From: Entomospira culicis | Lineage (GTDB): Bacteria; Spirochaetota; Spirochaetia; WRBN01 | Assembly: GCF_028748145.1 (NCBI RefSeq) | Contig: NZ_CP118181.1 | Coordinates: 379,433-443,432, forward strand | Direction of reading: 5' to 3' | Length of the DNA: 64,000 nt | Shown: piece after piece, positions 6,792 to 37,691 of the stretch | How positions within the stretch are numbered: position 1 is the first letter of the stretch | Layout of the letters: every line of letters starts with the position of its first letter | Notes under the pieces: generated by a model | Seen by the model: only the letters and a program-made list of their open reading frames with translations | What the model was told of the DNA's origin: nothing | Databases searched by the model: none | Program-made: the position numbers and the translations under genes

Positions 6792-6848
6792 AATAAATTG
6801 TTAATGATAATTGAAAAAGACTTTGGAGCAATCCAGAGTTCATAAATC

Positions 6849-8388
<1,540 letters not shown>

Positions 8389-26475: not shown

Positions 26476-27580
26476 ATGACGTTGGTGGAATTGAGTCAAC
26501 AATTTACTTCTCTATATGATGCAATCGATGAAAAACGGAGGCGTCTTTGACTTTACTGGCTTGAAACGCGAGGTGATGGAGTTGGAGTTGATGAGTCATC
26601 ATCCTGATTTTTGGAACGATAGGCAAAAAGCAGAAGCAACTTTAGTGAAGATTAAGAAGTTGGCATCGCGCTATCAACCTTGGGAGAAGCTTTATCAGGA
26701 TGCTGATGAGTTGAGGTCGACGCTAGAGATTGTCAAAGAGCTTGACGATGCGGAGTTGGAAGCCGAGGCGGTGGCGCAATATCTGGCGATGCAGGCAAGT
26801 TATAAGACGTTATTGCAACGTGAGCGTCTCCATGAAGAGAGTGATCCCCTCGATGCAATTATTACGATTCACGCGGGGGCAGGTGGCACGGAGTCTTGTG
26901 ATTGGGTGCGCATGCTTTATCGTATGTATAGCCGATATGTCCAGAGTCAGGGCTTTGAGCAGGAGATTCTCGATGTGCAAGATGACGAGGGTGGCTATCG
27001 TGATATCTCTTTTCAGGTTAAGGGTGAGTATGCTTATGGTCTGCTGAAATACGAGACGGGTATTCACCGTATGGTGCGGATCTCTCCTTTTGATGCCGCC
27101 GCGCGCCGTCATACCAGTTTTGCCTCGGTTTACGTAACGCCGGTTTTGGACGATTCCATCGTCGTAGAGATCAAGCCCGACGATGTGCGTATTGATACCT
27201 ATCGTGCATCGGGCGCGGGTGGACAGAAGGTCAATAAAACCTCTTCGGCGGTACGTATTACGCACTTGGCAACGGGTATTGTGGTGGCCTGTCAAAATGA
27301 GCGCAGTCAATTTCGTAATAAGGATATCGCCTATTCGATTTTAAAGGGTCGCCTCTATCAACATTATAAAGCTCAGCGCGATCAAGAACGAGAGGCTAAT
27401 GCTGTGGAGAAACGCGATATCGGCTTTGGTAGTCAGACGCGAAATTACGTCTTTCAGCCTTATACATTGGTCAAAGATGTGCGTACTAAGGCGGAAACCT
27501 CGCAAATTCACGCGGTGATGGATGGAAAAATTGATCTCTTTATCGAAGCTGCACTAGAAGAGCAGTGGACTTCGCACTAG
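26476..27580 (+). CDS. prfB: Peptide chain release factor 2 with programmed +1 frameshift
   Basis: Reading starts at ATG 26476. After 24 codons it meets an in-frame TGA (26548-26550) in the context CTT-TGA-C, with GGAGG five bases before CTT. Ribosomes that slip +1 continue as DFTGLKREV to the stop at 27580, giving a 367-residue RF2. The SPF recognition tripeptide (about 203-205) and GGQ (about 248-250, in ASGAGGQKVNKT) are intact. RF2 ends translation at TGA and TAA; slow termination at its own TGA raises frameshifting and autoregulates it. The gene follows argS and precedes a PEGA-like protein by one base. Confidence 0.95.
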
Positions 27581-27581
27581 T

Positions 27582-29033
27582 ATGATGAGGCGCTATCTTA
27601 TTCTTATCTATTTCTTATGTCTAGCTTCGTCGCTCTTTTCGGCACAACGATCGTTGCAGACTTTGTCGGCATACCGTATTGCGATGGTGCAACATAGTGA
27701 TGATCCGCCACAACTCAAACAGCTTTGGAGTGAATTGGAGAGTGAGTTATTGCTTCTTTCTCGTCATCAGGTGAGTGAATTTGCGCACTTTTGGTTGCTT
27801 TATCAAGCGAGACTGGAGGAATTTCTTTTTGAAGAGGAGCGACTTAACCGTTTAGAGGAGCAACTGAAAGAGCTTCAAGGGCAGAAGTATCCTAATCTAA
27901 AAGCAATTCAGGAACAAAAGCGTAGTATCAAGGCACAGCGCAAGGTGCTTCAGATGATTCCGCAAAAAATCCCCGATTACAAAGTGCCTGAGCAATTACC
28001 TATTGAGCTTATTCGCGAGAATGGTGTACTTATCAATGAGTTGGAAGATACGCAAATTGGCATCAATTTTTGGTTATTTGCGGAGTATTCGGCGCTGGAT
28101 AATCGCTCTTTTTTCTTCTATTTGTATGGGTATGATCGTATGCAAAATCAGCGGGTGGAGCTTTTTCGTGGGGTAATTCTTTGGGAAGATCGTGCTAAAA
28201 TGTTGCGGAAGGCACTAGATACAGCGCGTCATCTGTGGTTGGGGCGTAGTTGGTCGGCTATTGAATTGGTGGATACGCCTAGTACGTCAAGCTTTCGTCT
28301 CCAGTGGCAAGATGATACAGGCGTGCCGAGGATGCCAGCCGTGGAGCAGAGACATTTAGAGAATTTAGCGGTAGATGACGGGCGATTACGCGCGCATGCG
28401 GTGGGATTTCAGCGTCAGGAGTGGTATCTTTCGCTCCAAGAAAATACCCGCCACGAGCTCTCTTTTGAGGCGATTGTCAGTAGCGATGACGATCGTTTTA
28501 TCCGCACGAATATTAATGGGGCGGAGGTCTATTTGGATGGTATTTATCAAGGGCAAGCACCTCTTACTATCCAAGCACGTGCGGGGCAAATGGTGAGCAT
28601 TGTCGATCGTGCGAAGATTCGTCCGCCATTGATTTACGAAGTACGGGAGGTGGATGAGGAGATATTTTTGCGTTTTTCTCTGCCTATCGATCAACAAAAA
28701 GAGTTGATTTTGGCGCAAAAAAAGCAATTTTATTGGTGGGCGGGGAGCTTTATTGTCTCGTTGATTTTGCCTATTGTTTTTTATAATCTCTATCTTGATT
28801 ATGCACAAAAAGCCAACCGCTATTACTCCTTAGGCTGGGAGTATGAACAGCAACGAGCCTTGCGTATGTCTCGCGGATTTGGTTATGCGGGCATTGGCAC
28901 GGGGATGCTTTCGGGCGGATTATTGGGAGTAAGTATTTATCAGCTTTACAATTATGTGGAGATCTCTCAAGATCCAACGCATCGCCAAAGAAACGAGGCT
29001 GACGATGAGTTGGAAGAGAGTGCGCTTAGTTAA
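27582..29033 (+). CDS. Exported PEGA-domain-like membrane protein
   Basis: The 483-residue protein starts with a signal peptide (residues 1 to about 21). A Gln/Glu-rich coiled segment lies near 85-130. A PEGA-like motif NINGAEVYLDGIYQGQAPLTI appears around 305-325; PEGA folds are small beta domains of envelope proteins. A membrane helix near 385-405 (WWAGSFIVSLILPIVFYNLYL) and a second glycine-rich one near 430-455 follow. It starts one base after the prfB stop with no clear ribosome site, suggesting coupling. It abuts the convergent aminotransferase with no gap. Function beyond envelope location is unknown. Confidence 0.75.
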   Translation: MMRRYLILIYFLCLASSLFSAQRSLQTLSAYRIAMVQHSDDPPQLKQLWSELESELLLLSRHQVSEFAHFWLLYQARLEEFLFEEERLNRLEEQLKELQGQKYPNLKAIQEQKRSIKAQRKVLQMIPQKIPDYKVPEQLPIELIRENGVLINELEDTQIGINFWLFAEYSALDNRSFFFYLYGYDRMQNQRVELFRGVILWEDRAKMLRKALDTARHLWLGRSWSAIELVDTPSTSSFRLQWQDDTGVPRMPAVEQRHLENLAVDDGRLRAHAVGFQRQEWYLSLQENTRHELSFEAIVSSDDDRFIRTNINGAEVYLDGIYQGQAPLTIQARAGQMVSIVDRAKIRPPLIYEVREVDEEIFLRFSLPIDQQKELILAQKKQFYWWAGSFIVSLILPIVFYNLYLDYAQKANRYYSLGWEYEQQRALRMSRGFGYAGIGTGMLSGGLLGVSIYQLYNYVEISQDPTHRQRNEADDELEESALS

Positions 29034-30227
29034 TTAGCGTTGATTGTAAGCTTTGAGCCCTGCTTCAATGATGGCGACAGCTTTCTTGATGCTTTCAATA
29101 TTAAGGACATAGGCGATGCGCACCTCATTTTTCCCTTTATCGGGCGTGGTGTAGAAGCCGGCTCCGGGGGTGAGCATGACGGTGGTTTGATCGACGGCAA
29201 ATTCGGTGAGCAACCACTTGGAGAAGTCTAGGCTATCCTCTACGGGAAGCCCAACCATAAGATAAAAAGCGCCCTCGGGTTTGCGCAGGGTAACTCCAGG
29301 CACTTTAGCAAGGAGATCGCACATGACATCACGGCGTTCTTTAAATTCGGGAATGCTTCGGCGAATAAAATCCATATCTTCACGATAGAGTGCGGCTGCC
29401 CCGATCTGCTCGAGGGTCGTGCCACTAAGGCGAGATTGACAGAGTTTGAGAAAGATAGCTGCGAGCTCTTGATTCTTGGTGAGCAGAAAGCCTACACGTG
29501 CTCCACAGGCGCTAAAACGCTTGGAGATCGAGTCGATGATAACCGTCTGTTGGGCGACTTCGGGTAGGAGCGAGAAGCTCTTGGTGGCAAAGCCGTCGTA
29601 GATATACTCACGGTAAACCTCGTCGGCAATGATCCATAAGTGATGCTCTTTGGCGATTTCGGCGATACGTTTTACCTCTTCCACGCTATAGGTAACGCCA
29701 GTGGGGTTAGCGGGATTGGAGAGAAGAATGGCCTTGGTTTTGGGGTGGATGTGGCGCACGATCTCTTCTTTGCTGGGCAGGTGAAAGCCCTCTTCGATGG
29801 TAGTGGGAATCCCGTCGATCTCTACCTCGACAACTTTGGCGATCGAGATATAGTTGCTGTAGAGAGGCTCGGGGACAAGGAGGCGATCGCCTGCCTCACA
29901 GAGGGCGATAAAGGCGTAAAGGAGCGCTTCGCTACCGCCCGTGGTTACGTAGATTTCATTTTTTTCAAAGGAGGCACCCATATTTTTATAGTAGGTCTGC
30001 ACCTCTTGAATAAGCTCGGGTACGCCTGCGGAGGGCACGTATTGGAGTTGATGCGACTCGATAGCACAGATGCGTTGAAAGAAGACACTTGATACGTCTA
30101 AATCGGGTGCGCCGATGTTGAGATGTAGCACCTTTACGCCTTTCTTGGTGGCCTCTTGTTCGTACGCGGCTAACTGGCGCACTGCACTTGTGGGGATGGC
30201 GTTGGATCGTTTTGATGTTGCTAACAT
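29034..30227 (-). CDS. PLP-dependent class I aminotransferase
   Basis: From ATG 30227 (AAGGAG six bases upstream; an ATG-like start at 30263 lies before it) the protein is 397 residues. Fold-type I features are present: LNIGAPDLDV, TTGGSEALLYA, SNPANPTGV, IIADEVYREY and DSISKRFSACGARVG, whose Lys binds PLP. Members use aspartate, alanine or aromatic amino acids, and the sequence alone does not decide. It lies downstream of kynureninase on the same strand, which makes alanine or kynurenine a plausible substrate; that is context-based inference. Confidence 0.88.
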   Translation of the reverse strand: MLATSKRSNAIPTSAVRQLAAYEQEATKKGVKVLHLNIGAPDLDVSSVFFQRICAIESHQLQYVPSAGVPELIQEVQTYYKNMGASFEKNEIYVTTGGSEALLYAFIALCEAGDRLLVPEPLYSNYISIAKVVEVEIDGIPTTIEEGFHLPSKEEIVRHIHPKTKAILLSNPANPTGVTYSVEEVKRIAEIAKEHHLWIIADEVYREYIYDGFATKSFSLLPEVAQQTVIIDSISKRFSACGARVGFLLTKNQELAAIFLKLCQSRLSGTTLEQIGAAALYREDMDFIRRSIPEFKERRDVMCDLLAKVPGVTLRKPEGAFYLMVGLPVEDSLDFSKWLLTEFAVDQTTVMLTPGAGFYTTPDKGKNEVRIAYVLNIESIKKAVAIIEAGLKAYNQR

Positions 30228-30343
30228 GGAAATCTCCTTGGGTATGAATATACAGATATTCAATATATTTTTATAATTTTGAGATAAAAATTATCATCTA
30301 TGACTCGGTAAAAAGCCATAGACTTAAGTAATATAAAGGCGGA

Positions 30344-31624
30344 CTAAACGACCGTACCCCGATTGATGGAGTATTGCTCGTAGAGTTTGTCCACAATGAT
30401 GGTTTGTAATATCTCCACGACACGATAGACCTCTTCATAGGTGTTATAAAGAGCGATAGGCGCTAGGCGAATAACATTGGGCTCTCGGAAGTCTGGAATC
30501 ACGTGAAGATCGCGTAAGGCGATACTAATGCGATAGGCTTCTTCATGCTCTAAAGAGACATGTCCGCCTCTAAATTGATCCTCACGCGGGTTACCTACGG
30601 TATAGCCAAAGGGCTTGAGTTTATGATCGATAAGATACATGAGGTAGGCGGTAATATGGAGTGATTTTTGCCGAATCTGATGAATTCCTGCCTCTTCAAA
30701 GATCTGCAGTGCGCCTAAGAGCGGGGTCAGCGAGAAGATGTTGGGGGTACCAATTAGCCAGCCGTTGGCATCGATATCTTGATCGAAGGTGTGATTGAGT
30801 TGGAACTGGGTGGCATCTTTGTTGCCAAACCAGCCCCGTAGCCCGGCTTTTTTGCCAAAGTGTTTTTTATTGATATAGAGACCACCTGAGGCACCTGGTC
30901 CACCATTAATGTACTTATAGTTGCACCAGACGGCAAAATCAGCATCGATAGCTTTGAAGTCGTGGGGGATAGCTCCCATTGAGTGCGCTAAATCCCAGCC
31001 GACGAGAATACCTCGTTGATGTGCAGTCTCGGTAATCGTTTGCATATCCAAAAGTTGGGCGCTACGGTAGAGAACTGATGGAAGCCAGACAATAGCCACG
31101 TCCTCGCGCATGGCATCAATGATATCTTGGGTTGCGATGGTTCGGCTATCGCGACTTTTCACGGTAATGAGCGCATCTTTTGGATCTAAATTTTTCAACT
31201 CAATGAGACTTTGCACGGCATAAATATCGCTGGCAAAGTTAAGTTCATCGACGACAATTTTATAGCGCTCTTTCGTTGGGTGATAAAACGTGGCCAATAC
31301 TTGGTGAATGTTTGCGGTAATGGTGCCCGTGGCAATGATTTCCTGCGCATCAGCATTTAACAGAGGGGCGGTCTTTTTGGCGATAAGACGGGATATATTG
31401 AAGTATAAGCCATCTTTAGTGTTCCAAATTTTAATGCCTTCCTTTTTCCAATCCTCCAAACTGGTCAGTAAGCTCTCTTGGGCATCTTTGGAGGCCATGC
31501 CTAGGGAATTCCCGTCCATGTAGATCTCATTCTCTACTTTAAAAAAGCGCTTTTGGAATGGGGCTAAGGGATCTTGTTGATCTAAGTTTTTGGCAAATGA
31601 CACATCGTCTTTAAATTGATACAT
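30344..31624 (-). CDS. kynU: Kynureninase
   Basis: The 426-residue PLP enzyme has the full set of kynureninase motifs: EIYMDGNSLG near 35, GWDLAHSMGAIPHD, DFAVWCNYKYINGGPGASG with the PLP lysine, LRGWFGNKD, LIGTPNIFSLTPLLGAL and FREPNVIRLAPIALYN. It cleaves L-kynurenine (or 3-hydroxykynurenine) to anthranilate (or 3-hydroxyanthranilate) plus L-alanine in the cytoplasm. ATG 31624 follows AAAGGAG. It is cotranscribed behind an MFS carrier, and alanine dehydrogenase is encoded divergently nearby. No other tryptophan-degradation or NAD-synthesis gene is in view, so a catabolic rather than biosynthetic role is inferred. Confidence 0.93.
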   Translation of the reverse strand: MYQFKDDVSFAKNLDQQDPLAPFQKRFFKVENEIYMDGNSLGMASKDAQESLLTSLEDWKKEGIKIWNTKDGLYFNISRLIAKKTAPLLNADAQEIIATGTITANIHQVLATFYHPTKERYKIVVDELNFASDIYAVQSLIELKNLDPKDALITVKSRDSRTIATQDIIDAMREDVAIVWLPSVLYRSAQLLDMQTITETAHQRGILVGWDLAHSMGAIPHDFKAIDADFAVWCNYKYINGGPGASGGLYINKKHFGKKAGLRGWFGNKDATQFQLNHTFDQDIDANGWLIGTPNIFSLTPLLGALQIFEEAGIHQIRQKSLHITAYLMYLIDHKLKPFGYTVGNPREDQFRGGHVSLEHEEAYRISIALRDLHVIPDFREPNVIRLAPIALYNTYEEVYRVVEILQTIIVDKLYEQYSINRGTVV

Positions 31625-31672
31625 TGTGCTTTTCTCCTTTTTATTTTATGGGATAAATATCCCAGAGCATAC

Positions 31673-32881
31673 CTACTGTCCCTTTTTGGATTGCATAACG
31701 TTGTAGATGATCATCCCCATGAGTCCGATGATAGCCACGCCTGCTAGCAAGGTAAATCCCCTAGACCAGCTAGTGGAGAGGATCACTTTGATGGTTAGGG
31801 GGGATCCAACGACAATCATAAAATAATACATTGTATTGACCAGTGAGATATGATAGCCTGTAACTTCTGGTTTTTTCGAGAGGGCGGAGGCTAAGATCAT
31901 CACCGCAGTGTAAGAGAAAGAGATCCCAAAAGAGATAGTAAACCACCAACCAATATAAATGCTGGTGGAGAGATGCGCGTCTGTTATCCAGCTGTAAAGA
32001 GGCACGGCAATCAAGACGCTTATGAGCATTAAGATGAATCCTAACGCTCCAATGATGACAGGTTTTTTGCTCTTTTCAATGATGATACCGGCAAGTACCC
32101 CAGAAATAATGCCCGAAAGACCAAAGGTGCTGGCGTAAGCATTGGCGAGATGGTCGGGCAGTAGGTAGAGATCTTTCATCATAAAAGGCCCGATTTGGAT
32201 CATGGTGAAGAGAATAAAGGTCATCGCCCCATGGCTTAGTGTTAAGATCCAAATTTTTTTATCACTTAGCGCCTGCGTAAGAAAATTTTCAGGCTTATGC
32301 TTGGTATTTTTTTCTGTCCCAATCGGTTCTAACACAAAGATAAAGAGTACCATAGTTAGTAGCGAGAGCACGGTTAGATAGATCCAGATACTACGAAAAC
32401 CCGTTAGCGGAATGAGTGTCGTACTAATATTAAAGATGATCAACTGGGCTAGGGCGGAGAATGTGCCAAAAAAGCCTAATGCCGTGCCACTGCCTTTGTC
32501 GGCAAACCAATGACGAATATATACCATCGCCACCATGAGATACATGGCAAACGAGATGCCTTCAACTGCGCGTGAGAGGAGAAGAAGTGGATAGTTACTA
32601 ATGAAAACATATCCTAAGAGATTGCCTAACGCGAGCACGGCCATTAATAAGACAATTAAACGTTTGGCGCCAATTTTTGCCATCAACATTCCACCTGGGA
32701 TGGCCAGAAAAATTCCTGATATCGAAAAAATAGAGGATAGCAGTTGGATATCGCCTTTATCGACACCTAAAGAGTTACTGAGTGCATCCAGAACTAGGGT
32801 GGGCGCAATTTTGAGTTGACTCATAGAGATGACAAAGGCTCCAAAGTAAATGAACGAAAATTTTAGCCATCGTTGATACAT
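31673..32881 (-). CDS. MFS transporter in the kynureninase operon
   Basis: From ATG 32881 (GCGAGG five bases upstream) the protein is 402 residues with twelve predicted membrane helices in two halves and a charged central loop (EPIGTEKNTKHKPEN). The motif-A position reads GGMLMAKIGAKRLI, as in CynX/NIMT-like carriers. It is first in the operon, 48 bp before kynU, so kynurenine or another aromatic amino acid is a reasonable guess for its substrate; sequence alone does not say whether it imports or exports. A 16-base palindrome (TGGGATA..TATCCCA) lies between it and kynU. Confidence 0.85.
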   Translation of the reverse strand: MYQRWLKFSFIYFGAFVISMSQLKIAPTLVLDALSNSLGVDKGDIQLLSSIFSISGIFLAIPGGMLMAKIGAKRLIVLLMAVLALGNLLGYVFISNYPLLLLSRAVEGISFAMYLMVAMVYIRHWFADKGSGTALGFFGTFSALAQLIIFNISTTLIPLTGFRSIWIYLTVLSLLTMVLFIFVLEPIGTEKNTKHKPENFLTQALSDKKIWILTLSHGAMTFILFTMIQIGPFMMKDLYLLPDHLANAYASTFGLSGIISGVLAGIIIEKSKKPVIIGALGFILMLISVLIAVPLYSWITDAHLSTSIYIGWWFTISFGISFSYTAVMILASALSKKPEVTGYHISLVNTMYYFMIVVGSPLTIKVILSTSWSRGFTLLAGVAIIGLMGMIIYNVMQSKKGQ

Positions 32882-32958
32882 AAACGCCTCGCTTGAAAAA
32901 TAGTTTATAGTGTAAAAGGAGCGACCGAATAAATACGAAGTAATCATTCAATATCTTC

Positions 32959-32988
32959 AGTATAGCATCACTGAATTTATATTGTCAA
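32959..32988 (-). promoter_or_regulatory. Promoter for the MFS-kynU unit
   Basis: On the minus strand TTGACA (32988-32983), 18 bp and TATACT (32964-32959) with TG one base before the -10 are seen. The leader is about 70 nt. Confidence 0.8.
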
Positions 32989-33061
32989 GCTGTTTTTATG
33001 CAACGACAGTTCAATATCTAATGTGGCTACCTGATAGGGTAAAAATCCGCAAAGAAAAAAG

Positions 33062-33091
33062 TAGACAGTAAGTGAGGAGTCGTGATATGAT
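33062..33091 (+). promoter_or_regulatory. Promoter for alanine dehydrogenase
   Basis: TAGACA (33062-33067), 18 bp, TATGAT (33086-33091) with extended TG. It lies back-to-back with the kynureninase-operon promoter, about 75 bp apart, which would suit joint control. Confidence 0.6.
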
Positions 33092-33139
33092 GAAATGTGT
33101 TAGATAGAAATGTTACCTGTTAAGTAAGGAGAGATGAGA

Positions 33140-34246
33140 ATGGTTATTGGATTACCCAAAGAGATTAAAAATCATGAGAATCGCGTGGGGTTGACGCCAG
33201 CGAATGTGTTGATGTTAACGCAGGCAGGGCATAGCGTACGCGTGCAAAGCTCGGCAGGTGAGGGTAGTGGCTTTAGCGATGAGGAGTATGTGGCTAGTGG
33301 CGCAACGATAGTTGCTGATGGCGCTTCTGCTTGGGATGCACAGATGGTGGTAAAGGTCAAAGAGCCACAGCCTTCGGAGTATGGCTACTTTAAAGAGGGC
33401 ATGTTGCTCTACACCTATCTACATTTAGCCGCCGAACCTGCGCTTACGAAAGCTCTAATGGAGAAGGGGGTAAGCGCGGTTGCCTATGAGACTGTCCAGC
33501 TAAGCGATCGATCGCTTCCTTTACTCGCGCCGATGTCTGAAGTAGCGGGTCGTCGCGCGGTGAATGTTGCTTCGACCTTTTTAGAGAAGCATCATGGTGG
33601 GAAAGGGATTCTTCTCTCTGGCGTACCAGGTACGGCGCGGGCGCATGTGGTGATTGTGGGTGCCGGCGTAGCGGGCTTGAGCGCAGCACGTATGGCGTAT
33701 GGTCTTGGGGCGCGGGTAACGATTTTGGATGTCAATCTTACACGTTTACGCTACATTGACGACACCTATCACGATATCCAAACGCTCTACTCCAATGAGT
33801 ATAATCTTGCCGAGGTGGTAAAGAGTGCCGATGTCTTGATCTCGACGATTTTGATTCCTGGTACCAAAGCGCCTAAGATTGTCAAAGAGTACATGGTTGC
33901 CTCGATGAGTAAGGGATCGATTGTCATTGACGTGGCAATCGATCAAGGTGGATCGGTGGAGAGCATTGATCGTATCACCAGCCATGATAATCCTGTTTAC
34001 GAAAAGCACGGCGTCTTACACTATTCGGTGGCCAACATGCCAGGAGCCACGCCTCGTACCTCCACCTTTGCGCTGACCAATGCAACCTCGGCCTATCTCT
34101 TGGCACTGGCAAATCATGGAGTTCTCGCCTGCAAGGAGAATCCTGCGTTACTCTTAGGGCTTAATACGCACAAGGGGAAACTCACCTATAAGGCGGTTGC
34201 CGATGCCTTAGGCATGACCTACACCGAGATTTCTTCATTATTTTAG
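33140..34246 (+). CDS. ald: Alanine dehydrogenase
   Basis: The protein is 368 residues from ATG 33140, which is eight bases after AAGGAG; ATG 33134 is too close to it. Ald interconverts L-alanine and pyruvate plus ammonia with NAD. Family motifs are GLPKEIKNHENRVGLTP at the start, MVVKVKEPQPSEY (catalytic Lys region), YLHLAAEP (catalytic His) and the NAD-binding VIVGAGVAGLSAARMA. Two amino-acid/dicarboxylate symporters follow on the same strand and kynureninase, which releases alanine, is encoded divergently. The natural reading is alanine catabolism to pyruvate. Confidence 0.95.
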   Translation: MVIGLPKEIKNHENRVGLTPANVLMLTQAGHSVRVQSSAGEGSGFSDEEYVASGATIVADGASAWDAQMVVKVKEPQPSEYGYFKEGMLLYTYLHLAAEPALTKALMEKGVSAVAYETVQLSDRSLPLLAPMSEVAGRRAVNVASTFLEKHHGGKGILLSGVPGTARAHVVIVGAGVAGLSAARMAYGLGARVTILDVNLTRLRYIDDTYHDIQTLYSNEYNLAEVVKSADVLISTILIPGTKAPKIVKEYMVASMSKGSIVIDVAIDQGGSVESIDRITSHDNPVYEKHGVLHYSVANMPGATPRTSTFALTNATSAYLLALANHGVLACKENPALLLGLNTHKGKLTYKAVADALGMTYTEISSLF

Positions 34247-34285
34247 GATTAATTATGGATTTTTATAGATCTTTTGATATATTTA

Positions 34286-34294
34286 TGCTATAAT
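34286..34294 (+). promoter_or_regulatory. Extended -10 promoter for the first symporter
   Basis: TGC directly followed by TATAAT (34289-34294). The -35 position holds only a weak TAGATC 17 bp upstream. A leader of about 25 nt contains AAAGGAGG. Confidence 0.55.
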
Positions 34295-34325
34295 AACCAA
34301 AAGATTCGAGAGAAAGGAGGAGATA

Positions 34326-35522
34326 GTGGGTAAGAAAAAGATGCCGTTGTTGGTAAAGTTGATATTAGGGATTGTGCTGGGTATTGCGATAGGATTAAGC
34401 ACGAAGGCGATGGGATTCCTCTTGCCAATTCAGCTACTTGCAACATTTAATGGCTTATTTGGTAGCTTCTTAAGCTTTGTTGTCCCGTTATTGATCCTCT
34501 CCTTTGTCTCGGTGGGGATTGCCGATTTAGGAGGTGGCGCGGGAAAGTTGTTGGGTTTATCGGTGGGTATGGCGTATGTAAGTACGATTGTCTTTACCTT
34601 ATTGGCGATGTTTGCTTCCCAGCTCATCGTCTTTCCTGCGCTCTTAACGCCGAATGCGGTCTTTAGCGATCTTATTGATAATCCAAAAAATTTCTTGGTG
34701 AGCGGTCTCTTTAGTATTCCGATGCCTCCCGCATTAGATGTGATGACGGCACTGCTTTTAGCATTTGTTTTGGGGGTCGGTCTCACCAAAATTGGCGATA
34801 TGGGCAAGCCTCTCTTTCAAGGCTTGCTTGCCTTTCAGAAGATCATTGAGAAGTTGATCGCAGCGATCCTTATTCCCTTGTTACCGATTCATATTGCCGG
34901 AGTCTTTGCTAATATGAGCTATGGGGGCAAGGCTTTTGAGGTGATGCGGATGATGATGGTGGTCTTTGGGATTATCTTGAGTTACCATGCGATTACGCTC
35001 GTGATCCACTTTGTAGTTGCCTCTATTGTACAAAAGAAGAGTCCGTTAAAACTCTTTTTGACGATGTTTCCGGCATATGTAACGGCGCTAGGTACGCAGT
35101 CTAGTGCGGCGAGTATTCCAGTGAGCAAGCAACAGATGAAGCAAGCGGGGGTGCGCGAGGATATTGCTAACTTTACCGCCCCTCTCTTTGCAACCATCCA
35201 CATGCCAGGTAGCGCGATTACGATTAGTACGATTGCTTTCTCTTTAATGTATATGAGTGGTGCTCCTTTTGATTATAGCGTGGCGATTAACTTTGTGTTG
35301 ATGCTAGGGATTGCGATGGTAGCAGCCCCTGGGGTTCCTGGGGGGGCGGTGATGGCAGCTTCGGCGATTTTGATCTCGATTATGGGGTTTGGCGAGACAC
35401 TATTAGCGCTTACCATTGCGATGCATTTAGCGCAAGACTCCTTTGGTACGGCCTGTAATGTTACGGCAGATGGTGCATTATCCTTGGAGATCGACGCGAT
35501 AGCTGGTAAAATGAAAGAATAA
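34326..35522 (+). CDS. Dicarboxylate/amino acid:cation symporter (DAACS family)
   Basis: The 398-residue membrane protein starts with GTG at 34326, five bases after AAAGGAGG. The DAACS core is visible: a first helix with LLVKLILGIVLGIAIGL, the serine-rich reentrant loop ALGTQSSAASIPVS, PGVPGGAVMAAS and a C-terminal QDSFGTACNVTADGAL that occupies the place of the usual substrate-binding D..RT..NV.GD. The Arg-Thr pair is absent there, hinting at altered specificity (neutral amino acids rather than dicarboxylates). Such carriers import with Na+ or H+. It lies between ald and a close paralogue, so alanine or serine is a possible substrate. Confidence 0.88.
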   Translation: MGKKKMPLLVKLILGIVLGIAIGLSTKAMGFLLPIQLLATFNGLFGSFLSFVVPLLILSFVSVGIADLGGGAGKLLGLSVGMAYVSTIVFTLLAMFASQLIVFPALLTPNAVFSDLIDNPKNFLVSGLFSIPMPPALDVMTALLLAFVLGVGLTKIGDMGKPLFQGLLAFQKIIEKLIAAILIPLLPIHIAGVFANMSYGGKAFEVMRMMMVVFGIILSYHAITLVIHFVVASIVQKKSPLKLFLTMFPAYVTALGTQSSAASIPVSKQQMKQAGVREDIANFTAPLFATIHMPGSAITISTIAFSLMYMSGAPFDYSVAINFVLMLGIAMVAAPGVPGGAVMAASAILISIMGFGETLLALTIAMHLAQDSFGTACNVTADGALSLEIDAIAGKMKE

Positions 35523-35643
35523 ATCGCTTAATATTGTAGGTATTTCCATCTTTTCAATGTGATAGATCTATGTGTTATCTCTAAGTGAAAATTAAACGAT
35601 GACTCACACGCTGATGCGTTTGGCGTATGAAAGGAGGAGGAAG

Positions 35644-36846
35644 GTGGCTACAAGGAAAAAAATTCCCTTATTATTGAAGTTGGTGCTGGGAATTGTTTTG
35701 GGTTTGATGGTGGGGTCTCTGTTGGGGCGATTTCAGGTGGTATGGCCAGTGCGCGTCTTTGCGACGTTTAATGGATTATTTAGCACCTTTTTAAGCTTTG
35801 TTGTCCCGCTATTGATTCTCTCTTTTGTTACGATGGGTATTGCCGATTTGGGCAAGGGCGCAGGGCGAATGCTAGGATTATCGGTGGGGCTTGCCTATGT
35901 GAGTACGGCATTTTTTGTGGGCTTGGCGATCTTTTCTTTTCGCTTGTTGCTTCCTTATATGGGTTTGGAAGGGGGTGGCTTTCAACAGATGATGGACAAC
36001 CCTAATGACTTCTTACTTACCGGCTACTTTAGTATCCCTTTACCGCCGGTGATGGATGTGCTTACGGCGCTGGTGCTTGCGTTTGTCTTGGGCTTGGGCT
36101 TAACCGGCTTGTCGAGCAAGGAGAACGCGCTTTATGAAGGAGCGCATATTTTTCAAGGGATTATTGAGAAGCTAATTGATCGCGCGATTTTACCGCTTTT
36201 GCCTTTACATATCACAGGTGTCTTTATGAACATGAGTTATAGTGGTGAGGCTAAGCACGTGATGAGTATGATGCTGGTGGTTTTTTTGTTTGTGGTTAGC
36301 TTCCAAATTTTGACACTTTTTGTGCACTTTGGTTTGGCTGGAGTGATGACTAAGCGCAATCCATTTAAATTGCTTTGGGAAATGTTTCCTGCGTATGTTA
36401 CTGCGCTGGGCACACGATCTAGCGCCGCCTCGATTCCTGTAACGCGCCGTCAAATGACGGTGATTGGGGTGGATGAAGATATCGCTGACTTTACTACGCC
36501 GCTCTTTTCGGCAATTCACATGCCTGGTAATGCGATTAGTGTTGGCATTATTGCGTTCTCTTTGGCAGCGATTGCAGGCATTGAGGTCTCCTTGGCAGAT
36601 ACTTTTGGGTTAATCTTTATGTTAGGCATTATTATGGTGGCCGCACCAGGAATTCCGGGTGGAGCGATTTTGGCAGCGATGGGCTTTTTACAAACCAATT
36701 TTGGTTTTAGTGAAGCATTGATCACTCTAGCCATTGCGATGGATTTTGCTACCGATCCCACAGGAACAGCAACCAATGTAACCGCCGATGGGGCGTTGGC
36801 GCTCGAAGTGCAAGCGATTATGGAAAAGAAAGAAAAAGCGAAGTAG
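35644..36846 (+). CDS. Second dicarboxylate/amino acid:cation symporter, tandem paralogue
   Basis: From GTG 35644 (AAAGGAGG six bases upstream) the protein is 400 residues and aligns end to end with the preceding symporter (KKIPLLLKLVLGIVLG, FVVPLLILSFV.MGIADLG, YVTALGTRSSAASIPVT, TGTATNVTADGALALE). The two GTG starts correspond. It also lacks the Arg-Thr pair in the C-terminal substrate loop (DFATDPTGTATNV). The pair arose by tandem duplication. An upstream in-frame ATG at 35599 would precede the ribosome site. It ends at a strong hairpin. Confidence 0.88.
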   Translation: MATRKKIPLLLKLVLGIVLGLMVGSLLGRFQVVWPVRVFATFNGLFSTFLSFVVPLLILSFVTMGIADLGKGAGRMLGLSVGLAYVSTAFFVGLAIFSFRLLLPYMGLEGGGFQQMMDNPNDFLLTGYFSIPLPPVMDVLTALVLAFVLGLGLTGLSSKENALYEGAHIFQGIIEKLIDRAILPLLPLHITGVFMNMSYSGEAKHVMSMMLVVFLFVVSFQILTLFVHFGLAGVMTKRNPFKLLWEMFPAYVTALGTRSSAASIPVTRRQMTVIGVDEDIADFTTPLFSAIHMPGNAISVGIIAFSLAAIAGIEVSLADTFGLIFMLGIIMVAAPGIPGGAILAAMGFLQTNFGFSEALITLAIAMDFATDPTGTATNVTADGALALEVQAIMEKKEKAK

Positions 36847-36908: not shown

Positions 36909-37691
36909 TTAGGTAAAACGATACATATAGCCGAGGTAGAAGGTACCACGCACGCTGTTGACGCCACGAATATGGGGATCGATTTGGTCGAAGTTCCCCT
37001 CATCCCAAGCTTTGCTATCCTGAAAGAGACCAATCATTCCACTGATGTTAAAGTTGGCACGAGCATTGAAGGTTACAAAGTGTTGCTTATTTTTGTCGAG
37101 AGGAACATTGAGTCCGATATCAAAGGCGCTAATGAAGTCGACTTTCATTTTTCGGCTGTAGACGTCGTTAAGGGATTTATCGTCGACAAATTTAGGCGCG
37201 GTGGCAATCGAAAAGCCAGGCCCAATCGCGATATACATCCAACCATAGCGAAATTTTGCTAAGAGATCAAACTGAAAGTCGGTAAAGCGCAGGTGTTGAT
37301 CCCAAAGTCCTAAGAGGGATAGCTCCGGAATTTCTATTCCGGGGGCTAGGGTAATCATACTTGCGGTGTGATCAACCACGCGGGTACGGTTACCAAAGGA
37401 GACGAAAAATTCGGGGGTGAGGGCAAACCAATGATTAAAGCCGATGTCGCCGTAAATGCCTAAGGATGTTGCTACGTGATTGTAAGATGCCCCTTGTACT
37501 CGCACCGTATTGGTGAGCAAACCTTGAAGGATCGGATAGAGATCAGTAGGGACAACAGGAAAGAATTTTGTGGTGCTAGAGGTGCCTAAGCCCACGCCTA
37601 CGCGCGCACCCACGGTGTAATTCATTTGTAATGCCTGCGTTTGAAGGGGGAGAAGGAAGGGCAGGATCAACATAGGGATAATTTTTCGCAC
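36909..37691 (-). CDS. Putative outer-membrane beta-barrel protein
   Basis: The 260-residue protein starts with GTG at 37691 and a signal peptide ending near TQALQ (20). The mature part has alternating hydrophobic and polar residues with many aromatic strand ends (GDIGFNHWFALTPEFFVSFG, RYGWMYIAIGPGFSIA, GTFYLGYMYRFT). This suggests an eight- to ten-stranded barrel inserted in the outer membrane. The family was not identified. AAAAGGAG lies about ten bases upstream and overlaps a perfect 14-bp palindrome (37706-37719). No terminator separates it from the tRNA-Arg gene upstream, so it may be read from the tRNA promoter. Confidence 0.7.
   Translation of the reverse strand: MRKIIPMLILPFLLPLQTQALQMNYTVGARVGVGLGTSSTTKFFPVVPTDLYPILQGLLTNTVRVQGASYNHVATSLGIYGDIGFNHWFALTPEFFVSFGNRTRVVDHTASMITLAPGIEIPELSLLGLWDQHLRFTDFQFDLLAKFRYGWMYIAIGPGFSIATAPKFVDDKSLNDVYSRKMKVDFISAFDIGLNVPLDKNKQHFVTFNARANFNISGMIGLFQDSKAWDEGNFDQIDPHIRGVNSVRGTFYLGYMYRFT

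What the first reader, a model, noticed from the sequence alone, without database searches (positions are those of the whole stretch)
29034..36846. Kynurenine-to-pyruvate catabolic island in a spirochaete
Seen: an MFS carrier and kynureninase share one promoter, followed by an aminotransferase. Back to back with them is alanine dehydrogenase, then two amino-acid symporters. Known: kynureninase releases L-alanine and (3-hydroxy)anthranilate; Ald turns alanine into pyruvate, ammonia and NADH. Inference: the bacterium imports host kynurenines, burns the alanine and exports the aromatic. From memory, mosquitoes lack kynureninase and must dispose of toxic 3-hydroxykynurenine by transamination; an insect symbiont with this island could feed on, and detoxify, it. 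I know of no described spirochaete system like this.
Basis: partly seen in the sequence, partly recalled or inferred. Interest (0 to 1): 0.78.

Follow-up and report, generated by a model that had tools for sequence, protein, structure and literature searches.

The report
Mosquito spirochaete's kynurenine-splitting gene cluster
A spirochaete from the gut of Culex mosquito larvae carries a kynureninase, and probably a transporter, acquired from Bacillota, beside an alanine dehydrogenase, and so probably imports the tryptophan waste product kynurenine, burns its alanine part and discards anthranilate.

Summary
The genes are as described. KynU (30344-31624) and Ald pass curated cut-offs; the MFS gene lies 48 bp upstream of kynU behind a near-consensus promoter. 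Replicon sizes match Entomospira culicis BR151, from Culex pipiens larval midgut. KynU nests inside Bacillota kynureninases, and the MFS resembles Bacillota ones (about 40%), not spirochaete MFS: horizontal transfer. Of 395 sampled genomes of the Enterococcus order, 23 have true kynU; the same MFS is adjacent in 20, an AsnC/Lrp regulator in 22, full-length Ald in 11. MFS-KynU-Ald is thus a recurring module. The window Ald does not descend from the sampled cassette Alds (AU p 0.0027), so the pairing probably formed separately. The genome lacks detectable TDO, TrpD and NadC: kynurenine probably comes from outside and anthranilate is probably a dead end. Pocket residues are of the kynurenine-preferring type, so 3-hydroxykynurenine detoxification is the weaker part of the claim. 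The aminotransferase and two SDF symporters are not supported as members. Precedents exist: Snodgrassella in bees, Pseudomonas in Anopheles. New within the searches made: a spirochaete case and the recurring module. No activity was tested.

The parts
31673..32881 (-). MFS transporter, candidate kynurenine importer (ORF extends to 32947; start at 32881 preferred)
   Evidence: PF07690. 35-43% identity to the MFS beside kynU in Bacillota; best match by E-value among 247 other genomes of its class is a 25% partial one. The 32881 start aligns with homologue starts.
30344..31624 (-). kynureninase (kynU)
   Evidence: TIGR01814 359.3 bits over cut-off 246.4; PF22580 KYNU_C; catalytic Lys and substrate-pocket residues align with 1qz9
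33140..34246 (+). alanine dehydrogenase (ald); ORF opens at 33134, a GGAG sequence upstream favours the ATG at 33140
   Evidence: TIGR00518 514.3 bits over cut-off 391.85; divergent from MFS-kynU; sequence read
32959..32988 (-). promoter-like site for MFS-kynU, TTGACA-18-TATACT
   Evidence: 11 of 12 consensus, best of 22 in the region, where shuffles give 15.3 on average; not evidence of function by itself
32956..32975 (.). dyad TTCAGT-N8-ACTGAA overlapping the -10 element, possible operator
   Evidence: exact match, and the only one in the 64-kb window with up to 2 mismatches; shuffles give 2.46 on average at that tolerance, so weak
33062..33091 (+). promoter-like site for ald, TAGACA-18-TATGAT with TG
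   Evidence: 10 of 12 consensus; weak
29034..30227 (-). class I aminotransferase (PRK07568 type; ORF extends to 30263), neighbour; membership not supported
   Evidence: closest solved relative by sequence is an aspartate aminotransferase, 2gb3; no relative found in the Bacillota kynU loci searched with it
34326..35522 (+). SDF-family symporter A, neighbour; substrate unknown
   Evidence: PF00375; below SstT cut-off
35599..36846 (+). SDF-family symporter B, paralogue of A (54.6%); substrate unknown
   Evidence: PF00375; below SstT cut-off
30296..30323 (-). terminator-like hairpin between kynU and the aminotransferase
   Evidence: 11 pairs, 3 G-C; weak, number of such hits not above shuffles

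Best explanation
A kynurenine-salvage unit. The MFS protein brings in L-kynurenine made by the mosquito or present in its food. Kynureninase splits it into anthranilate and L-alanine. Alanine dehydrogenase turns alanine into pyruvate, ammonium and NADH; anthranilate leaves the cell. Shown by sequence: enzyme families, conserved catalytic and pocket residues, origin of kynU from Bacillota, recurrence of the MFS-KynU-Ald grouping in Bacillota, and no detectable gene to make kynurenine by TDO, to re-use anthranilate by TrpD or to make NAD from quinolinate by NadC. Inferred: MFS substrate and direction, direction of the Ald reaction, preference for kynurenine over 3-hydroxykynurenine, and any effect on the mosquito.
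For: KynU and Ald pass curated cut-offs. Of 395 sampled genomes of the order of Enterococcus, 23 have true kynU (E below 1e-100); cassette MFS is adjacent in 20, an AsnC/Lrp relative in 22, full-length Ald in 11, Ald remnants in 2 more, in three gene orders. The window Ald does not group with the sampled cassette Alds (cassette plus window as one clade rejected, AU p 0.0027), so the pairing probably formed separately. KynU nests inside Bacillota (100/100; sister to Tissierellaceae and Clostridiaceae rows 98/92). MFS: 37-41% to cassette MFS over its length, no such relative in 247 other genomes of its class. No TDO, no TrpD over cut-off, no NadC in the genome (control genomes with a match 2, 14 and 12 of 14). 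W67, G292, T293 match P. fluorescens W64, G281, T282, not human H102, S332, N333. Mosquitoes lack kynureninase (passages).
Against: No assay. The three closest KynU genes (Soehngenia, two Clostridiaceae) have neither MFS nor Ald in their loci, so MFS and KynU may not have travelled together, though the next (G565, 61%) has both; the MFS tree does not resolve the window protein. Full-length Ald is absent beside kynU in 12 of 23 genomes. Full-length or long Ald relatives occur in 70 of 296 other genomes of the class (E below 1e-80), where kynU is rare (2 of 392 sampled genomes of the phylum), and Ald can run towards alanine. The group for the AU test was chosen after the tree was seen, the window Ald has a long branch, and a cassette Ald of an unsampled donor, or replacement of the original Ald, is not excluded. 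The cassette regulator family (AsnC) was not found in the genome. Indoleamine dioxygenase (another source of kynurenine) was not searched. The genome is estimated 95.84% complete. Whether the other Entomospira species carry kynU could not be tested.
Confidence: 0.7

Rival explanations
1. Kynureninase serves to supply anthranilate for tryptophan synthesis, as in Chlamydia caviae, C. felis and C. pecorum.
For: Known system in animal-associated bacteria: trp operon with kynU and without anthranilate synthase (passages of PMC3937554). S. alvi cultures given kynurenine also made tryptophan (passage).
Against: No TrpD over cut-off in the genome: best match 38.1 bits against 199.05. None of the proteins annotated next to kynU is a Trp enzyme. 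Other trp genes were not searched.
Confidence: 0.05
2. The neighbouring genes are two units placed together by chance: an MFS-kynU pair, and an amino-acid unit of Ald with two SDF symporters that feeds on alanine, serine or aspartate.
For: Divergent promoter-like sites. Ald relatives with E below 1e-80 in 70 of 296 other genomes of the class. SDF genes follow Ald directly. Window Ald does not group with the sampled cassette Alds.
Against: Full-length Ald beside kynU in 11 of 23 genomes. No SDF relative of these in the other spirochaete and Bacillota Ald loci examined, which reach only about 1.5 kb to either side. Chance adjacency in a genome of 1,675 genes (PMC11636382 Table 1) is about 2 in 1,675 (simple estimate).
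Confidence: 0.2
3. A 3-hydroxykynurenine detoxification or feeding system.
For: Mosquito larvae store 3-hydroxykynurenine (passage of PMC10778832). A Pseudomonas alcaligenes kynureninase is reported to remove it in Anopheles (cited in PMC9369995 and PMC10599646).
Against: Pocket residues are those of the kynurenine-preferring type; bacterial KYNU is said to prefer kynurenine (passage of PMC7461572). No benefit to a host was tested.
Confidence: 0.15
4. The MFS protein exports anthranilate, or exchanges it for kynurenine, while kynurenine enters by a general amino-acid carrier.
For: Fold search gives generic MFS matches, exporters such as NorA and an L-lactate carrier with aromatic carboxylates bound among them (6zgr). 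Three of 23 kynU loci lack a full-length MFS.
Against: Sub-threshold sequence matches of the window MFS and of three relatives are led by a D-galactonate transporter model, an importer type; 14 of 16 genomes examined, own included, lack TDO and probably need kynurenine from outside.
Confidence: 0.3

Closest known systems
Snodgrassella alvi kynureninase of the honey bee gut (PMC11343714, passages)
   Same: Insect gut symbiont, horizontally acquired kynureninase, the only annotated gene of tryptophan degradation; converts host kynurenine to anthranilate
   Different: Closest kynureninases are beta- and gammaproteobacterial by its authors' account; the passages seen mention no MFS or Ald partner; a betaproteobacterium, not a spirochaete
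Pseudomonas alcaligenes kynureninase in Anopheles stephensi (Feng 2022, not seen; cited in PMC9369995 and PMC10599646)
   Same: Mosquito gut bacterium whose kynureninase removes a host kynurenine metabolite
   Different: Target reported is 3-hydroxykynurenine in Anopheles; described as microbial tryptophan catabolism; no Ald cassette mentioned in the passages seen
AsnC-MFS-KynU(-Ald) loci of Enterococcus, Listeria, Vagococcus and relatives
   Same: Same MFS, same KynU type, full-length Ald adjacent in 11 of 23; no TDO in the six four-gene genomes that were tested
   Different: AsnC regulator present; Ald downstream on the same strand as a rule; TrpD present in those six, so anthranilate could be re-used
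Chlamydia caviae, C. felis and C. pecorum tryptophan recycling (PMC3937554, passages)
   Same: Host kynurenine cleaved by a KynU that may have been transferred
   Different: Anthranilate is the wanted product, kynU sits in a trp operon; here TrpD is missing
Exiguobacterium sibiricum tryptophan degradation (PMC2615787, passages)
   Same: Kynureninase with anthranilate as dead end
   Different: Has TDO and formamidase, starts from tryptophan

Membership tests
Kynureninase (EC 3.7.1.3, TIGR01814) | Score above curated cut-off | tested here: met
   359.3 against 246.4 bits
Kynureninase (EC 3.7.1.3, TIGR01814) | Schiff-base Lys and neighbouring active-site residues (roles recalled) | tested here: met
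   Y236-K237, D133, D211, W265 align with 1qz9 Y226-K227, D132, D201, W256
Kynureninase (EC 3.7.1.3, TIGR01814) | Cleaves kynurenine to anthranilate and alanine | not testable with these tools
   needs enzyme assay
3-hydroxykynurenine-preferring (eukaryote-like) kynureninase | His102, Ser332, Asn333 (human numbering; role recalled, not from a call) | tested here: not met
   W67, G292, T293 instead; the 30 Bacillota rows have W 30, G 30, and S 18 or T 12
Alanine dehydrogenase (TIGR00518) | Score above curated cut-off | tested here: met
   514.3 against 391.85 bits
Bacillota MFS-KynU-Ald cassette | MFS and KynU adjacent on one strand | tested here: met
Bacillota MFS-KynU-Ald cassette | Adjacent AsnC/Lrp regulator | tested here: not met
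   no PF01037 match in the genome (11 of 14 control genomes have one); 22 of 23 loci have a relative of the AsnC proteins
Bacillota MFS-KynU-Ald cassette | Ald inherited with the cassette | tested here: not met
   window plus sampled cassette Alds as one clade rejected, AU p 0.0027; group chosen after the tree was seen, unsampled donors not excluded
Chlamydia-type tryptophan recycling | TrpD to use anthranilate | tested here: not met
   38.1 against 199.05 bits; 14 of 14 control genomes over cut-off
Kynurenine route to NAD | Quinolinate phosphoribosyltransferase | tested here: not met
   no PF01729 match in the genome; 12 of 14 control genomes have one
Tryptophan-to-anthranilate pathway | Tryptophan 2,3-dioxygenase | tested here: not met
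   no PF03301 match in the genome; 2 of 14 control genomes have one
Tryptophan-to-anthranilate pathway | Indoleamine 2,3-dioxygenase or kynurenine formamidase | not tested
SstT serine/threonine symporter | Score above curated cut-off | tested here: not met
   71.8 and 85.6 against 308 bits
Kynurenine aminotransferase | Closest solved relative is a KAT | tested here: not met
   best 2gb3 aspartate aminotransferase E 1.4e-91; KAT I only E 1.2e-22. A side activity on kynurenine is not excluded.

The most novel reading that the evidence does not exclude
The MFS-KynU-Ald module is an undescribed, repeatedly assembled kind of pathway that mines only the alanine side chain of imported kynurenine: the MFS exchanges kynurenine for anthranilate, and Ald harvests pyruvate, NADH and nitrogen. 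In Entomospira it sits in a larval mosquito gut whose host cannot hydrolyse kynurenine, and draws the pool down upstream of 3-hydroxykynurenine and xanthurenic acid, altering host pigment, toxicity or parasite signals.
Probability: 0.25. Interest if true: 0.82.

Novelty: new variant of a known kind. Interest (0 to 1): 0.6.

Why it matters
Mosquitoes lack kynureninase (passages), and their kynurenine pool feeds eye pigment, a toxic intermediate and xanthurenic acid, which Plasmodium needs in its vector (abstract of PMC9369995). A culturable spirochaete of Culex larvae that can remove kynurenine would be a host-metabolite-specialised symbiont in a phylum where this is not described in the searches made. 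The Bacillota module gives a named, testable candidate for a dedicated bacterial kynurenine transporter and a gene-neighbourhood marker for kynurenine use by gut bacteria.

Tried and rejected
Considered and set aside: tryptophan recycling (TrpD missing); NAD synthesis (NadC missing); aminotransferase as a kynurenine aminotransferase (nearest solved relatives are aspartate aminotransferases; similar enzymes at 36-45% in 24 of the 117 other class genomes, E below 1e-80; in the one other genome of the family, G397, the best match is only E 3e-23); SDF pair as part of the unit (not seen near the other Ald genes, in loci of about 1.5 kb to either side); whole cassette moved in one piece from a sampled relative (Ald phylogeny rejects it). 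A single origin of the Bacillota cassette Alds was not rejected (p 0.159), so I do not claim several recruitments inside Bacillota.

Led nowhere: the dyad TTCAGT-N8-ACTGAA has no exact match in the cassette loci, and with 2 mismatches allowed its number in the window is not above shuffles; ATATTGAATATC is likewise near chance (11 matches, shuffles 8.06); the MFS tree does not place the window protein (end branch 2.1, no starred set); the MFS fold search returns generic MFS matches and does not tell substrate or direction; of two literature searches on the pocket residues, one search gave one review that I used (PMC7461572) and nothing of use.

Rows dropped: KynU tree 3 of 49 (L062 and L162 fragments, L160 split by a frame change). 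Ald tree: matches under 330 columns or over E 1e-60 left out, identical rows merged, 59 kept. MFS tree: split or partial rows left out, 28 kept. The spirochaete G353 has the only other KynU over cut-off among the 392 sampled genomes, at 32% identity on a 4.6-kb contig; its neighbourhood could not be read further and contamination is possible.

Limits of the searches: the genome search draws a sample of a larger group (392 of the phylum, 297, 248 and 118 of the class, 395 of the order) and scores only the best candidates of a first look; the search for related loci works by short peptide patterns, so it is not a full list of kynureninases. Not tested: indoleamine dioxygenase, kynurenine formamidase, KMO, 3-hydroxyanthranilate dioxygenase, other trp and nad genes, NAD salvage, other Entomospira species.


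Full report
What is there. NCBIfam and Pfam identify kynureninase (30344-31624, minus; TIGR01814 359.3 bits against a cut-off of 246.4, KYNU_C domain), alanine dehydrogenase (33134-34246, plus; TIGR00518 514.3 against 391.85), an MFS protein (31673-32947, minus; over the cut-off only of the general Pfam model MFS_1), a class I aminotransferase of the PRK07568 subfamily (29034-30263, minus), and two SDF-family symporters (34326-35522 and 35599-36846, plus) that fall far below the SstT cut-off. The MFS start is more likely at 32881, where the homologues begin, and the aminotransferase start at 30227. The MFS and kynU genes are 48 bp apart and share the strongest promoter-like site of the region (TTGACA-18-TATACT, 32988 to 32959). 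A weaker site faces ald. The aminotransferase is separated from kynU by 116 bp with a weak terminator-like hairpin.

Which organism. The window lies in a genome of 1,769,585 bases in 4 contigs. The three smaller contigs measure 98,591, 28,402 and 3,005 bases, exactly the three plasmid sizes of Entomospira culicis BR151 in Table 1 of PMC11636382 (main text read in part 1 of 2). That strain came from the larval midgut of Culex pipiens. The genus description (PMC7554043) does not contain the string 'kynurenin' (term search only).

Where kynU came from. In a pattern-based scan of one genome for each of 84,980 species, the nearest kynureninases are from Bacillota: Soehngenia and two Clostridiaceae at 62-63%, then Mammaliicoccus, Enterococcus, Listeria and Vagococcus at 56-59%. 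On a maximum-likelihood tree of 46 rows the window protein lies inside the Bacillota group (100/100) next to the Soehngenia and Clostridiaceae rows (98/92). Of 392 sampled genomes of the phylum, 2 have a kynureninase over cut-off, this one and G353, which is 32% identical. The only other genome of the family held, G397, has no kynU (one match at E 3.6e-5, 24% identity) and no MFS match. The MFS is 35-43% identical to MFS proteins next to kynU in Bacillota, while the best match by E-value among 247 other genomes of its own class is a partial one at 25%. Transfer from Bacillota is the plain reading for kynU and the likely one for the MFS. Against a joint transfer: the three closest kynU loci have no such MFS, although the next closest, G565 at 61%, has MFS, kynU and Ald together; and the MFS tree does not resolve the window protein.

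A recurring module. I searched 395 sampled genomes of the order of Enterococcus (G547): 23 hold a true kynU, E below 1e-100. I read the flanks of all 23 (8, 15; analysed). The cassette-type MFS is adjacent in 20 (in one of these, G555, split between two frames), a relative of the AsnC/Lrp regulator (Pfam-identified in two loci, L035 and L045) in 22, and a full-length Ald in 11; two more carry Ald remnants. Ald lies downstream of kynU as a rule, but upstream of the MFS in G733, and the regulator is downstream in G565 and G718. Outside that sample, Enterococcus crotali (L037) has all four genes, and Metaclostridioides (L045) has regulator, MFS and kynU. A tree of 59 Ald sequences, with non-cassette Alds from the same Bacillota genomes and 29 spirochaete ones, puts the window Ald outside the cassette Alds. 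A tree that unites it with them is rejected (AU p 0.0027), whereas the cassette Alds alone as one group are not rejected (p 0.159). The first group was chosen after the tree was seen, the window Ald has a long branch, and the cassette of an unsampled donor or a later replacement of Ald is not excluded. The simplest reading is that the KynU-Ald pairing in Entomospira formed apart from the sampled Bacillota ones; if so, two pairings are better evidence for a shared task than the neighbourhood in one genome.

What the pathway can and cannot do. No match was found in this genome for quinolinate phosphoribosyltransferase (PF01729; 12 of 14 control genomes have it), tryptophan 2,3-dioxygenase (PF03301; 2 of 14) or the AsnC ligand domain (PF01037; 11 of 14). 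TrpD gives only a 38.1-bit match against a cut-off of 199.05 (14 of 14 controls over cut-off). The genome is estimated 95.84% complete, and indoleamine dioxygenase was not searched. Kynurenine then probably comes from outside, and anthranilate has no visible route to tryptophan or NAD. Of the 16 genomes tested, 14 lack TDO, including this one and the six with all four genes (G547, G549, G550, G551, G552, G555, the last with its MFS in two frames); those six do have TrpD. What all of them can use is the alanine. The Exiguobacterium genome paper says of that TDO-bearing bacterium that it has no pathway to degrade anthranilate further (PMC2615787, passage).

Kynurenine or 3-hydroxykynurenine. The window KynU has W67, G292 and T293 where the Pseudomonas fluorescens enzyme (1qz9) has W64, G281 and T282, and the human enzyme (3e9k) has H102, S332 and N333. 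The 30 Bacillota rows have W in 30, G in 30 and S (18) or T (12); the 18 rows outside Bacillota have H in 14, S in 17 and N in 15. That these residues decide the substrate is recalled, not read here; PMC7461572 (passage) says that bacterial kynureninase prefers kynurenine, the eukaryotic one 3-hydroxykynurenine, and that residues governing this have been identified. I therefore expect kynurenine as the main substrate. This weakens the detoxification idea but does not exclude it: reviews cite a Pseudomonas alcaligenes kynureninase that lowers 3-hydroxykynurenine in Anopheles (the original paper was not seen).

The transporter. An AlphaFold2 model from nine aligned proteins is good (mean pLDDT 84.0) and is a standard MFS fold. 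The Foldseek list mixes FLVCR, an L-lactate carrier with aromatic carboxylates bound (named), MCT1, OxlT and drug exporters at similar scores. K24, R104 and E107 are invariant in the nine. Import is inferred from genetics (no TDO) and not from structure; export of, or exchange for, anthranilate stays open.

Comparison with the known. Kynureninase use by insect gut bacteria is described: Snodgrassella alvi turns host kynurenine into anthranilate, probably with a transferred kynureninase, its only annotated tryptophan-degradation gene (PMC11343714, passages). Chlamydia caviae, C. felis and C. pecorum cleave host kynurenine to rebuild tryptophan (PMC3937554, passages), which the missing TrpD speaks against here. 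In the held library 'kynureninase' with 'alanine dehydrogenase' occurs in 2 papers, neither about a joint locus in the passages seen, together with 'Enterococcus' in none, and 'spirochete' with 'kynureninase' in one, seen as a listing only, whose title concerns human fibroblasts. The library lacks most subscription papers. So the kind is known; the spirochaete, the dedicated MFS and the recurring KynU-Ald pairing are new within these searches.

Verdict. The aminotransferase and the SDF symporters should be left out until expression data say otherwise, and 3-hydroxykynurenine should be demoted to a possible second substrate.

Noticed in passing
window 26477-27580: prfB (release factor 2; gene name recalled from its sequence) shows the classic programmed +1 frameshift: an ORF from ATG 26477 ends in CTT TGA C at about 26546-26552, with GGAGG just upstream, and continues in the 26516-27580 frame (sequence read).
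   Followed up: partly
window 36909-37691: Outer-membrane beta-barrel-like protein with a sub-threshold match to the TDE1717 family (27.6 against 135 bits), next to the cluster.
   Followed up: no
window 27582-29033: 483-aa protein with a PEGA domain (PF08308) directly beside the aminotransferase; no NCBIfam match.
   Followed up: no
window 6846-8383: 16S rRNA gene (Rfam RF00177), useful for naming the organism.
   Followed up: no
L036:11612-11743 and L148:4928-5077: Remnants of Ald beside kynU in Enterococcus caccae and G766 (44 aa at 79.5%, 65 aa at 47.7%): the Ald arm seems to be being lost in some lineages while MFS and kynU stay.
   Followed up: partly
L206:4340-6260 (Enterococcus gilvus megaplasmid pCR1A): AsnC/Lrp regulator and kynU on a 919-kb plasmid, with no Ald listed nearby (the gene table is incomplete): a possible vehicle for transfer, although typed as non-mobilizable. 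An MFS gene on the other side of the regulator was not compared.
   Followed up: partly
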